64,000 nt of DNA from Apostichopus japonicus. Lineage: Eukaryota; Echinodermata; Holothuroidea; Aspidochirotida; Stichopodidae. A program made the position numbers and the translations under genes. Of the stretch, positions 30,901 through 36,900 are shown in pieces; the first letter of the stretch is position 1; every line of letters begins with the position of its first letter. Under the pieces are notes generated by a model that was given only the letters and a program-made list of their open reading frames with translations, did not search any database and had not been told where the DNA came from. Location: contig NC_092567.1 of assembly GCF_037975245.1 (NCBI RefSeq), forward strand, positions 23,712,376-23,776,375, written 5' to 3'.

Positions 30901-33900
30901 TCCAGATTCTGGAAGAAGTGGTGTACAGTGTTTACTAAACATTCTTATGTTTATATTAGAGTTAAATTATTATGTACCATGTGTATGTTTATCGTTGTAC
31001 CCACAAGTCAGCCATTCGATATACAAAGTAGTTTGTAGTGATCGATTAAAGATGTGGTTGTCTTATTATTTTAGTATTTCAGACGAAAAAAAAGCTATTT
31101 GTTCGCCTTCACTATCCTTGATAGTGGTAAAGGTTGATAAATTAAAGGAGACACATACTAAACCATCATTATTTTTCTATTTGATAAAGACTGCTGTCAT
31201 GAATAACTCCTTCCTCTTTTCCTCCATCCCTCCTTTCCATCTCTCCTTTACTTCCATTCCTCCCCCTCCCTCCTCAATCAAGCCTACACACATCCCCTTT
31301 AATTAAATGTACTTGTTTCTCCTGAGTGTATTCATTGTGTCAACAATACCAGTCTAGACTCTTCAAGTAGGAAAGTGGCACACTGCAAACTTGGCAGACT
31401 TCACCACAATTTACGTGACTTTTTGGGGGTACATAAAAAAAATTGAAAAGACACATAAAAAACCTTCCCCAAGAAGTGCACCAGTTAACAGATCTGTAAA
31501 CCTATAAATAAATATGCAATGTTCAATCCTTGTGCATCTGACAGGTGTCAAGTCTGTTAAACCAGGATGGGACCTACGCGGCCAAATTTTAGATTTGCAG
31601 GCGTCGGTTTCAGAAAAGGAGGAGGAATTATTGGTTGTCAAGGAGACCGCTCAGTCTCATCTGGAAGAGAAAGAAACTCTACAAACTCAAGTTGAGATTC
31701 TGGAAGGTCGGATAAAAGAGATAACGAGAGAGTTGGAGGTCAAATCTGGCAAATATGACCTGTTACAGAGGGAGACCATTTCCATGGAGATGGAGTTATC
31801 CAATACAAAGGTTTGTATTAGTTTTAAAGATAAACAAGACTGTTCTTTGTCACATGACCCTTACAGAGCTCTCAGAATTGGGTCAAAATGTTTAATGCTG
31901 AGGTTAACATTAGGTCAATACACAGCCAGTTGGGAAAATTGTCCCATGCTAATACCACTCTGTACTGTCCTGCCATATCATGCTTGAAAGCACTCATACT
32001 GACAGTACAAACAGTTCCTAACCTTTATCTGATCAATAGAAACATGATATTCATACTGCTCATACTGACAATTTAATTGCTCTGAATACAGTATAGAAAA
32101 ATATTGTCCCTACCGGGTGTCAATACAATATGGTTATTGCAAGCCTGTAATGGTGATTAAACCTGTATACATGACAGTGAGGGAGGAATAGGTGGTCATT
32201 CCTCTATGTTCATAAACCTGTTTACATGTCGACAGTGAGGGAGGAATAGGTAGTCATGCACCAGAGTATATCCTTTCAGCTGGCTTCACCAATCGGTACC
32301 ATCTGTTTTGGTAGAGACTATCTGACCTCTTCACAGGCATCCAGCTGCAGCTTATATGTTGATCTTCATTGATAACTCACTATTCATGTGTTTTGCAACA
32401 TTTTCTGACACTTTCATCAACATTTACAGGCCACGGTTGAGAGGAAGGAAATGGTGATCAAAGAGAGAGATGGGGAAATCAGAGGACTGAAACAAAACAT
32501 TGACGAGATGACTGCAACTATAGAAGACCAGAATAAGAAACTAATCGAGGCCGAAGAGACGAGAAAACGTCTCCACAATGCAGTTCAAGAACTGAAGGTA
32601 AAGTAACAGAGCATTTCACATCTATGAAATCTTCAGCATTAAAGGCATGGAAGACTCGCCCCAAACTGCGTGCGGCCATCTGAAAAAGTTTCTGTTGCTT
32701 GCAAGTGACGTTTGTTTGTGTCGCTACAAAATGCAGACAGTTAATGATACTTTGTTATCTTTAGCTGGACCTGAGATGTCCATCGCTGTATCGTTTGTAT
32801 ACTGTGCTGTGGGTATTGACCGCAGCTGTATGTACTGACTGTACACTAGTGTCTAATTACTGACGGTAGCAAGCTGTGTGTGTATTTTCTGGGATCGATG
32901 GTGGTGTTTAACACTTCTGTTACACCTCATTCGAAACAAAGTCAAATTACCGGCATAAGACGTTTCTCTTTGCGCGAGTCTTCACACCCTTTAAAATGAG
33001 CATTTCCTTGTTGAACACACAATTATCCACATCCCCGCTCACACATATCCTTAGTAAATGTTATGAATATGCATATACATATCCATAGGAAATGTACTGA
33101 ATATGCATAGAACATATGTATACGGTACCTAAATGTACATCCCATAAGAAGTGTGTCTGGGTTCGCCTGAACATTTTCCCATAAGTTCATTGAGAATTTG
33201 TTCTGGATGTTTCCTGGTGTAAATGATGCCGGCGAGTAAACTTCTGTGCGACAATGACAAAACAGTACAGTTTGTGACTGTTATTTAAAGGAGCATATTG
33301 CATATTTTGGGCAAATTGAAGGTTAAAGCTTCAGACTTCGTTTTGCTAAAGTAACTGCATAGTAGCTACATAATGTGTAAATAGTGTCGTTTGGCAATTG
33401 AAAGAACATCAATGACTTAACAGAGAATTTTCAGGTCCTTGAAATATTGACATTCCTCTCGGTTGAAAATGTACCAAGTTTGGATTCAGTTAAGTTTTAA
33501 ATACTTTCCCAACCTATTTCAATCGGTCATGTGTAAGCCAAAAAGAGAAATAATTCGGGACACAATATGTTCTGATAATCTCATTCATACCAAGGCAGTA
33601 CCAACGTACTCTTTTATGATCCCTGTACGAAATATGCTCAAAACGGCAGTATGCTCCTTTAAATAACAATTGCAGACTACTTTGGAGAGGAGAGAGATGG
33701 TCATAAGCGATAGAGACAACGAGATCTCAAATCTGAACAAAACCGTTGAGGATTTGAAGGCGAAAATTGAAGAGCAGCACCAGGAACTGATCGAAGGAGA
33801 AGAGGCCAGGAAATCTCTTCACAACACAGTTCAAGAATTGAAGGTAAACCGTAACAGAGCACGCCAAATCTAAGAAAAATCAAACAAAAAGTCAGATCCA

Positions 33901-36900
33901 TTTGTTTCCTGAGTATAGGACAGCAAGTTTTCCAGACCTTGAATGCACAGTCAGGAATTCTGCCTGTCTAAGCTATTGTCTCTCAGAAATTACATTACAC
34001 TACATACATGTGTGTGTGTGTGTGTGAAATATGACCTCCAGCGACCTACAGAATGTGCCGTTTGATTGTCCAAAAATAAAGTACCAATCAAAAATTGAAT
34101 TGAATTTTGGGTTTTCTTTGGAAGAGGGGGGAGGGCACAGTGTTAAATGGTTTTGTCTGAGTGTTTGATAATATTGAAAAATGTACACTAAATATGAGGT
34201 GACAATGTTGTATATATGGTAGTTGTGTGAGGCTGTTACTTAAAGGAGCATACTGTGTCTTAGCCAAACCCTACAGTATCCCTGTCATTTAGATAGAATA
34301 GCTTTCTGTTTTAGCTTAGTATTGACCAGTGTAATAACACCCGAGACTTTGGTCTCAATATAGAAAGGTATTTTGGTGAATATTTACTCCCATGATATTA
34401 AGGTGAACACTGCAAAACCAAAAATGTAAAACAAGTAAATAGTGATTTGCTTTGATAGTCTCATAATTCTCTTCCTTGTTTAAGTCATAAATTAAGTGAG
34501 ACATTTGCCCCGTTACGATTGTTAATTCAAACGGCAGTATGCTCCTTTAACTAACGTTTACAGAGTACGTTGGAGAGGAAGGAGATGGTGATAAACGACA
34601 GAGACGCAGAGATCACAAATTTAAACGGAACCGTCGAAGAGCTAAACGCCAAACTTGAGGAGCAGCATCAAAAGCTGATAGAAGGAGAAGAGATGAGGAA
34701 ATACCTCCACAATGCAGTCCAGGAACTGAAAGTAAACAAAATATACAGTATTAACTTAGGGAATCAGTAGTTGGGAAAAAATGATATTTCAAACAGACAG
34801 TTGACCTGTAATATCATAGATATGCAAATTGATGACAAAAAACAAATGTCTTTATATATCTTGTCTTTATATTGTCTTTATATATCTTGTCTTAAAAACA
34901 ACTTGTCTTTATATATCTGAATACTTTTGACCTGTGACCTTGGATTCTACTGAGCTTTACCAACAGGATTCAGTAAGGAGGGAGGTGTGTGTGTGGGGGG
35001 GGGGGTGAGTAATAAAACACACACCATAAAAACCAGTGAATGTTGACTTATTGATTGTTCAAATTATGATGCATCCAATGATGAGATAGAAAATTAGAAA
35101 GTTTGATTAAAATTTAGAGAAAAGATTTTGACATTTTTTTACTATTAAGTCTTTTTTGTATACTGATCATATTAAACCCTTGCACCAAAGGCTTCAATGG
35201 TCAGTTCTACCTTGTGTGTTGCAATAACAATCGTCTTCATGGCATACACAATTTGTTGTTGTTTATTGTCATGGTTCTACTGGTTTTTCATGACCACATT
35301 TGCTTCCTTTTTTTTACAGTAGGTGACAACGACTGCCAAACATTCCACTTTTATCTATCTTGCATTAATTAATTTATGCAGGATAAAATTTATGCAGGAG
35401 GATAAAATTCTTTCTAAGGGTTTCTTTTTTCTTTTCTATGCAGCTGTATATTTTTCCCTGGATTCTTTGCCACTCTTCCCCCTAATATTTTCTTCCTCAC
35501 TAACTTAATCTACTTTCAGACTTTAATTTTCAGAATTTAGGGGTGAAAAAAATATATTTCAACACAGTTGAAAATACACAGATGCTCACCATGTCAGAAT
35601 TTTTGGATGCATTTCTGACAAGAAGATTTTTTTCTTCCATTCATTTCAAAATTGATTGTCATATTGATATCTTAGCACAGAATTCAAATTCCGATGGAAC
35701 TGATCAGCTTTTGATTTATTTCGTTAAATATATCAGAATCCTGAATTGCTATTAGTTTAAAATAAGTTAAAGTTATATATTTCTCATGAGAAATACATGT
35801 TCATATTATTTATTTTGTTTATGTTCGTATATTTTTTATGTTCATATTTCAACGAACATCCTACCTTTTACACGCCCCCTCTATCACCTCTCTCCTATCA
35901 ACCTACAAAGCCCCCCCCCCCCCGCTCCTATTAACCTACCATCCCTCCCTCCTCCACTTCAAAGCATATATTTTTCGGAGACGTCCCATTGCTTAATATA
36001 CAGTATCTCAATATCTGGGGATTAGATAAAATCAGAACCTTGAAGAAATTGCTTTTGAAAACTTCTGAATTCTTTTAGTGCTCTTAAGATTTGGGACTGC
36101 ATATTCTAGTGACAACAGTTATTATGACTCAATTTCAACCTAGCTATAAATAATGCCCCTTTTCTCTCTATTCAGGGTAACATTCGTGTCTACTGCAGAG
36201 TTCGACCACTGCTTACAGGAGAAGAAGAAGAAGCACAAGACTTCATCTCGTTTAGCGAAGATCAGAAACTCTTGGAATTGATCAATCTGAGAGATAGAAG
36301 CGTAAATAAGGTAAAACCAGAAATCAAGTGTAAACTCCATGACTAATTGTTTGCAAGAAATTGATAATTTTTAAAGTTCTGTAATTATCCGGGAATATTG
36401 AGCCAATATTGTTGCTAGCGCTACCTGACATTTTCACTAAAAATATTTGATTTTTATTTAAATTATTTGAATAAATACATCATTGAAAAATGTTGTTCTT
36501 CAAAACCAGGGAAGAAAAATGAAGTACCCAAGTGGAGAATGTACAAACTAAACAATTTATTTCTAACATTCGCAGACTTCAAAGAAACTAGAGTTTTCAT
36601 TCGATCATATCTTCGGACCAGCCTCTACGCAGTCCGAAGTTTTCAGCGAAATCTCGCAGCTTGTCCAGGTAAGATTAGCCTTGGTCATAGGATGGTGGAT
36701 ACCAGAAAGAAGTATAATAGACACTTGGAATTTGTGTTTGACTTGTATTGTGATTATATGTGCACGACACGATTAGGCAATGTGGACATGTGTGAATCGT
36801 ATCGCTCAAGTATATTTGTCTTTCTTTTTGGGGGAAATGGGAGTGGAGGAGAAAGTCCCAATTGAATAAGGCACTGCTTCAAAAATAATAGAAAAAACTG

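What the first reader, a model, noticed from the sequence alone, without database searches (positions are those of the whole stretch)
32430..34731. Three homologous, in-frame 56-codon neck exons in a kinesin-14 gene
Seen: three consecutive exons of exactly 168 bp, all phase 0 to 0, each starting (A/T/S)T(V/L)ER and each ending LHN(A/T)VQELK, the residues that in kinesin-14s run straight into GNIRV of the motor. Known: the neck coiled coil sets direction and coupling of kinesin-14 motors. Inference: 56 residues equal eight heptads, so including one, two or three copies keeps the coiled-coil register. Any copy can splice directly to the motor exon. The gene could make motors with different neck length or with mutually exclusive necks. 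The three copies have diverged but keep open frames and splice sites, which suggests selection.
Basis: partly seen in the sequence, partly recalled or inferred. Interest (0 to 1): 0.85.

Follow-up and report, generated by a model that had tools for sequence, protein, structure and literature searches.

The report
Triplicated neck exon in motor gene
An animal gene for a molecular motor that moves along microtubules carries three old, intact copies of the exon coding for its lever-like neck, so the animal can probably build versions of the motor with different necks, although no transcript has yet been seen to prove it.

Summary
Exons 32430-32597, 33676-33843 and 34564-34731 are each 168 bp, phase 0-0, AG/GT bounded, and can each join the motor exon at 36176. 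The gene is a KIFC1/Ncd-type kinesin-14, apparently of a sea cucumber (assembly size fits Apostichopus japonicus; inference). The copies are old and constrained: synonymous differences are near saturation (pS 0.64-0.78), pN is 0.12-0.24. All three keep one coiled-coil register and the residue matching Ncd N340, whose mutation makes Ncd bidirectional.

New here: the introns before copies 2 and 3 carry matching inverted arms that are almost identical while the sequence between them no longer aligns convincingly. The arms can pair locally or across exon copy 2, next to both acceptors. This resembles a published model for how competing RNA structures arise in mutually exclusive exons.

Alternative splicing itself is inferred, not shown; constitutive inclusion of all three copies remains possible, and the arms look transposon-derived. 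I call this a new variant of a known kind, interest 0.57.

The parts
31545..31810 (+). stalk exon upstream of the cluster ([10 protein letters not shown]...MELSNTK)
   Evidence: AG/GT bounded and open (sequence, translation); same heptad register as the copies
32430..32597 (+). stalk/neck exon copy 1, 56 codons
33676..33843 (+). stalk/neck exon copy 2, 56 codons
34564..34731 (+). stalk/neck exon copy 3, 56 codons
33277..33302 (+). arm A: left arm of the inverted repeat in the intron before copy 2
   Evidence: exact 14-mer inverted pairs with arm B; duplex A:B -46.0 kcal/mol, shuffled mean -12.2
33641..33667 (+). arm B: right arm, ends 8 nt before exon copy 2
   Evidence: 26 of 27 identical to arm D, 22 nt exact
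34232..34257 (+). arm C: left arm in the intron before copy 3
   Evidence: 21 of 26 identical to arm A; duplex C:D -32.2, B:C -34.9 kcal/mol
34529..34555 (+). arm D: right arm, ends 8 nt before exon copy 3
36176..36310 (+). first motor exon, starts [13 protein letters not shown]
36576..36668 (+). motor exon ([15 protein letters not shown]...)
37193..37366 (+). motor exon with P-loop GQTGSGKT
37689..37989 (+). motor exon with NERSSRSH
40411..40625 (+). motor exon with LAGSE and GGNSKT (ends approximate)
   Evidence: Pfam kinesin match; translation; holds the K640 equivalent of Ncd
41554..41631 (+). last recognisable motor exon, LMFVNVSP...SLRFAVKV (ends approximate, junctions inferred)

Best explanation
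This is an ancient tandem exon triplication in a KIFC1/Ncd-type kinesin-14 gene. Each copy codes the 14-residue neck and about 42 residues of adjoining stalk. I think most mRNAs carry one copy, spliced directly to the motor exon, so the gene makes motors that share a head but differ in the lever next to it, mainly in residues 11-30 of the copy. Copy 1 has no such hairpin at its acceptor. Copies 2 and 3 each have an inverted repeat whose right arm runs to 8 nt before the exon, so the RNA could fold to hide either acceptor or to loop out copy 2. Shown: three intact in-frame copies, low protein divergence at near-saturated synonymous sites, a common heptad register, retained neck-motor contact residues, and matching complementary intronic arms. 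Inferred: alternative use, one copy per mRNA, selection on the arms, control by the arms, and functional difference between isoforms.
For: Copies intact and in phase. pS 0.64, 0.78 and 0.74 against pN 0.24, 0.21 and 0.12 for pairs 1-2, 1-3 and 2-3. The last 9 codons, which hold the motor contact, have 1 and 0 non-synonymous changes in about 21 sites between copy 1 and copies 2 and 3, against about 32 and 28 in about 114 sites of the first 47 codons (Fisher on rounded counts, p 0.025 and 0.007). Copies 1 and 2 would not need the motor-contact motif if they never abutted the motor. The N of LHN matches Ncd N340: in the 2ncd chain it is index 60 and the G before NIRV is index 67, and that G is G347. 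Its partner K640 matches the K of GGNSK, also kept. Arms A/C are 21/26 and B/D 26/27 identical; the longest exact match between the two introns is 22 nt against at most 13 in 200 shuffles, though the sequence between the arms does not align clearly (local 49/300 shuffles as good). Apart from one local palindrome, the only exact 14-mer inverted pairs in 31812-36175 are A:B, B:C and C:D. Competing pairings next to tandem exons fit the model of Ivanov and Pervouchine (PMC6071210; part 1 of 5 read, passages).
Against: No transcript evidence. The exon length is a multiple of three, the introns are 1078 and 720 nt, and all sites are GT-AG, so only RNA structure or trans factors could enforce exclusivity. 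The C-terminal constraint is not significant between copies 2 and 3 (p 0.47); synonymous change there is not significantly lower either, but for copies 1-3 it leans that way (3 of 6 against 23 of 27, p 0.09). The last-nine block was chosen after seeing the motif, and over all three copies 8 of 9 against 30 of 56 invariant columns gives only p 0.022. The first ten codons are also fairly conserved. One part of the intron interiors, 33540-33640 against 34420-34528, is weakly alike (19/300 shuffles as good). C:D has an internal mismatch, I saw no compensatory change, and B and D can also pair with each other weakly (-21.6 kcal/mol, shuffled mean -11.9). The arms resemble transposon ends found elsewhere, so their identity may partly be family identity.
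Confidence: 0.5

Rival explanations
1. All three copies are always included, giving a stalk 112 residues longer than with one copy; the duplications simply lengthened the coiled coil.
For: All copies are in frame, keep AG/GT splice sites and one heptad register with the upstream exon. Nothing in exon length or intron size forbids serial inclusion.
Against: The motor-contact motif LHNxVQELK is kept in copies 1 and 2, which would then never touch a motor (a modest statistical signal). Inverted arms lie next to two of the acceptors.
Confidence: 0.27
2. Copies are cassette exons: mRNAs with one, two or three copies coexist, and the number sets stalk length in steps of eight heptads (about 8.3 nm at 0.1485 nm per residue, a recalled constant).
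For: Phase 0-0 and 168 nt make every combination readable; the register is preserved in every combination.
Against: No direct evidence; the motif argument above weighs for single use.
Confidence: 0.2
3. Only one copy is used and the others are relics.
For: None beyond the absence of transcripts here.
Against: No copy has a stop or lost splice site, and pN is low in all 3 pairs at near-saturated pS. The fragment on C3 shows what loss looks like: TAG at codon 3 and an altered donor.
Confidence: 0.03

Closest known systems
KIFC1/HSET and Drosophila Ncd (kinesin-14)
   Same: Motor joined directly to a coiled-coil stalk on its N-terminal side at LHNxVxxLxGNIRV; best PDB sequence matches.
   Different: I found no report of tandem neck exons in a kinesin-14 in searches (open-access full texts; listings seen; only 20 of 227 papers were listed).
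Mutually exclusive exon clusters controlled by competing RNA structures (Dscam, 14-3-3 zeta, Mhc, srp, MRP; as described in PMC6071210)
   Same: Tandem homologous exons of one length and phase, with complementary intronic elements that can pair in competing ways.
   Different: Here a whole hairpin lies upstream of each of copies 2 and 3 and its arms resemble transposon termini; exclusive splicing is not demonstrated.
Muscle myosin heavy chain genes with clusters of mutually exclusive exons (PMC3912159, title and start of abstract in the listing)
   Same: A motor protein tuned by alternative exons.
   Different: Myosin, not kinesin; here the exon codes the stalk/neck lever of a kinesin-14.
hydra gene of Drosophila, initial exons duplicated beside the DINE-1 transposon (PMC9013439, passages)
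   Same: Recurrent exon duplication with a transposon next to copies.
   Different: Initial exons in the untranslated region, linked to transcription start sites; no hairpin at an acceptor described in the passages seen.

Membership tests
Kinesin-14 (KIFC1/Ncd type) | Kinesin motor domain with the stalk joined at its N-terminal side through a conserved G (Ncd G347) | tested here: met
   Pfam PF00225 exon matches; 17 of 18 PDB sequences at E 1e-80 or better are named Ncd/claret, KIFC1 or Kar3, the other AGR253Wp (2.2e-101 to 6.5e-85); QELKGNIRV across the junction
Kinesin-14 (KIFC1/Ncd type) | Residues of the neck-motor contact N340-K640 of Ncd | tested here: met
   N in 3 of 3 copies; K in GGNSKT (contact named in PMC5680195, passages)
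Kinesin-14 (KIFC1/Ncd type) | Minus-end-directed motility | not testable with these tools
   needs a protein assay
Mutually exclusive exons | Adjacent homologous exons of equal length and phase | tested here: met
   3 exons, 168 bp, phase 0-0
Mutually exclusive exons | One and only one copy per mature mRNA | not testable with these tools
   no transcript data held
Mutually exclusive exons | Enforcement by frame, by too short an intron, or by a U2/U12 mix (some clusters only) | tested here: not met
   168 is a multiple of 3; introns 1078 and 720 nt; 3 of 3 donors GTAAA with AG acceptors
Mutually exclusive exons | Competing intronic RNA pairings | tested here: inconclusive
   A:B -46.0, B:C -34.9, A:D -34.1, C:D -32.2 kcal/mol against means of -12.0 to -13.4 for base-shuffled pairs; no other species to test covariation
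MITE-like transposon (origin of the arms) | Terminal inverted repeats shared with other genomic copies | tested here: inconclusive
   16-mer TTAAAGGAGCATACTG at 18 exact places against 1 for the reversed control; inward-facing pairs at up to 3 mismatches in 4 of 15 other loci read (L011, L014, L018, L024); searches with the interior of element 1 and the whole of element 2 found no relatives except the C3 fragment

The most novel reading that the evidence does not exclude
A transposon-like hairpin landed at the acceptor of a duplicated stalk/neck exon and was then copied together with that exon. Its four arms now form a competing-pairing switch that chooses which lever is attached to a minus-end motor, so that RNA folding of transposon origin sets the mechanics, perhaps even step size or direction, of a spindle kinesin.
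Probability: 0.2. Interest if true: 0.85.

Novelty: new variant of a known kind. Interest (0 to 1): 0.57.

Why it matters
The neck bears on direction and coupling in kinesin-14 motors, and this has been probed with engineered mutants (PMC2922096, passages). A gene that naturally carries three neck/stalk variants on one motor head would give ready-made variants to test how the lever sets speed, step and direction. The paired intronic arms would also be a test case for the proposal that duplicating an exon together with intronic stem-loop arms creates competing RNA structures, here with a transposon-like source.

Tried and rejected
Assembly artefact: rejected, because the copies differ at 24-32% of exon bases.

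Relics under no selection: rejected on pN against pS in all three pairs. The C3 fragment is a softer control than I first thought: it carries a TAG and an altered donor, but its other differences from copy 2 are still mostly synonymous (7.0 of 31.8 synonymous sites, 5.0 of 136.2 non-synonymous). That count includes change in copy 2 itself, so the fragment cannot be called freely drifting all along.

Donor-side elements pairing with arms or acceptors: 16 of 18 pairs had at least 32 of 200 shuffles as good; the exceptions were d2:D (12/200) and d3:A (3/200). With 18 tests I did not build on these.

Another kinesin gene as outgroup: I read seven loci around other kinesin matches (L004-L010), not all such genes. 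Only L004 held GNIRV, with its neck uninterrupted before it, so it does not help.

Independent insertion of two related transposons at the same place in both introns would also explain near-identical arms with different interiors. I think it less likely than one insertion followed by duplication, because CTGTTA left of the left-arm core and AAACGG inside the right arms are also shared, but I could not exclude it. The arm identity would then be family identity, not selection.

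Full report
What was checked. The window lies at G000:C7:23712376-23776375 of a 671,581,487-base genome in 35 contigs. That size fits the published Apostichopus japonicus assembly of 671.60 Mb, 34 scaffolds and 23 chromosomes (PMC10344927, passages seen); the species is my inference. The gene runs on the + strand. The three exons 32430-32597, 33676-33843 and 34564-34731 are each 168 bp, phase 0-0, with AG before and GTAAA after. 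The motor starts at 36176 with [13 protein letters not shown], and its last recognisable exon lies near 41.6 kb.

What gene. A peptide joined from the exons matches 18 distinct PDB sequences at E 1e-80 or better; 17 are named Ncd/claret, KIFC1 or Kar3, which are kinesin-14s, and one is listed only as AGR253Wp. In the 2ncd chain the aligned LHN asparagine is index 60 and the glycine before NIRV index 67; [quoted passage not shown] N340K makes Ncd switch direction (PMC2922096, passages), and N340 interacts with K640 (PMC5680195, passages). By the same counting in 1cz7, K640 is the K of GGNSK. The N is kept in 3 of 3 copies, and the K is kept. The neck proper is the 14-residue end of the stalk, so each exon is neck plus adjoining stalk.

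Age and selection. Nei-Gojobori counts give pS 0.64 (copies 1-2), 0.78 (1-3), 0.74 (2-3) and pN 0.24, 0.21, 0.12. Synonymous sites are near saturation, so the duplications are old, and protein change is restrained in all three pairs. Copies 2 and 3 are closest. The best of seven heptad registers is the same in the upstream exon and in all three copies (16/25, then 11/16 each). Residues 11-30 vary most, the last nine least. The last nine codons are short of non-synonymous change between copy 1 and the others (Fisher on rounded counts p 0.025 and 0.007) but not between copies 2 and 3 (p 0.47); synonymous change there is not significantly different (p 0.65, 0.09, 0.16). The block was chosen because of the motif, so these p values are generous. 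I read this as a sign that each copy abuts the motor in some mRNA; it is suggestive, not proof.

A broken relative. The genome search found one more copy of this exon, at C3:8051625-8051786. It comes with sequence matching 33477-34067, introns included, at 88% identity, and is followed by one partial and three fuller copies of the motor exon around 36576-36668. It has a TAG at codon 3, and the AAG/GTAAAC donor of copy 2 is lost, though a GTAACA remains close by. Introns show it was copied as DNA, from copy 2. Its exon differs from copy 2 mostly at synonymous sites (7.0 of 31.8 against 5.0 of 136.2), so it is a broken copy but not a clean yardstick of free drift.

The introns. The introns before copies 2 and 3 each hold an inverted repeat: arms A (33277-33302) and B (33641-33667), C (34232-34257) and D (34529-34555). 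B and D end 8 nt before the exon. A and C agree at 21 of 26 positions, B and D at 26 of 27; the longest exact match between the two introns is 22 nt against at most 13 in 200 shuffles. The stretches between the arms do not align clearly (local: 49 of 300 shuffles as good, reversed control 134 of 300; global: 20 of 300, reversed control 23 of 300); one part, 33540-33640 against 34420-34528, is weakly alike (19 of 300). Duplex energies are -46.0 (A:B), -34.9 (B:C), -34.1 (A:D) and -32.2 (C:D) kcal/mol against means of -12.0 to -13.4 for base-shuffled pairs; B:D reaches -21.6 (mean -11.9), and the acceptor of copy 1 pairs with none of the arms beyond its shuffles. Apart from one local palindrome near 35780, the only exact 14-mer inverted pairs between 31812 and 36175 are A:B, B:C and C:D. 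Minimum-energy folds of each intron alone pair most of A with B and of C with D.

Origin of the arms. The core TTAAAGGAGCATACTG occurs 18 times exactly in the genome against 1 for the reversed control. I read 15 further loci: 11 that hold all 15 exact places outside C7, and 4 of the 7 one-mismatch places that lie outside this locus. Four of 15 show inward-facing pairs at up to 3 mismatches within the stretch read, as expected of worn transposon ends. The longer GTTAYTTAAAGGAGCATA is exact at 4 places only: arms A, B and C and the C3 fragment; D has one mismatch. With up to two mismatches there are 165 places against 83 in the control. Searches with the interior of element 1 and with the whole of element 2 found no relatives beyond the C3 fragment (the tool warns that common words are skipped). 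So the arms look transposon-derived, but I saw no sign of a recently active family.

How it could work (inference). A:B and C:D together would cover sequence just upstream of the acceptors of copies 2 and 3 and favour copy 1. B:C would loop out copy 2 and cover its acceptor region. A:D would loop out copy 2 and cover the acceptor region of copy 3. Any one arm can be in only one pair at a time. Ivanov and Pervouchine propose that duplicating an exon with intronic stem-loop arms makes such competing structures, and they note that decay of mRNAs with two copies cannot enforce exclusivity for exons of a multiple of three (PMC6071210; part 1 of 5 read, passages). Short introns and mixed spliceosomes do not apply here (introns 1078 and 720 nt, GT-AG). 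RNA structure or protein factors are the remaining options.

Literature. Searches (2 of 2 listed; 10 of 10; 20 of 227 listed; 1 of 1) showed no paper that by its title or abstract start reports tandem neck exons in a kinesin-14; search 29 (KIFC1 with echinoderm, 8 of 8) and 51 (mutually exclusive exon with echinoderm, 4 of 4) listed nothing on this gene. Papers outside the open-access library are not covered.

Verdict. Observation confirmed, selection on the copies supported, alternative splicing likely but unproven, RNA switch possible. The kind, tandem homologous exons with competing pairings, is known; the place, the lever of a kinesin-14, and the transposon-like hairpins make it a new variant.

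Noticed in passing
L001:2918-4168 (G000:C3:8051417-8052667): Broken DNA-level fragment of this gene: exon copy 2 with flanking introns followed by one partial and three fuller tandem copies of the motor exon near 36576-36668; TAG and altered donor.
   Followed up: partly
L002:7781-8485 (G000:C7:23784156-23784860), about 8 kb beyond the window end: A second broken fragment of the same gene (matches 36217-36742 at 91%, then the motor exon again at 90%), with a stop in the first motor exon.
   Followed up: partly
window 32639-32994: The intron after copy 1 holds an interspersed repeat; further copies at 85-90% lie in L003 at 3897-4261 (+) and 5529-5901 (-), and part of it in L002 at 3-289.
   Followed up: no
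window 32598-32640 and 33844-33886: The first 43 nt of the introns after copies 1 and 2 are alike (score 19.0, maximum of 300 shuffles 14.5), but neither resembles the start of the intron after copy 3; possibly a conserved splicing signal.
   Followed up: partly
L012, L013, L016: A repeat of about 1.7 kb shared by these three loci at 86-93% contains the 16-mer TTAAAGGAGCATACTG, in tandem units of 29 bp in L012 (three) and L013 (two), once in L016.
   Followed up: no
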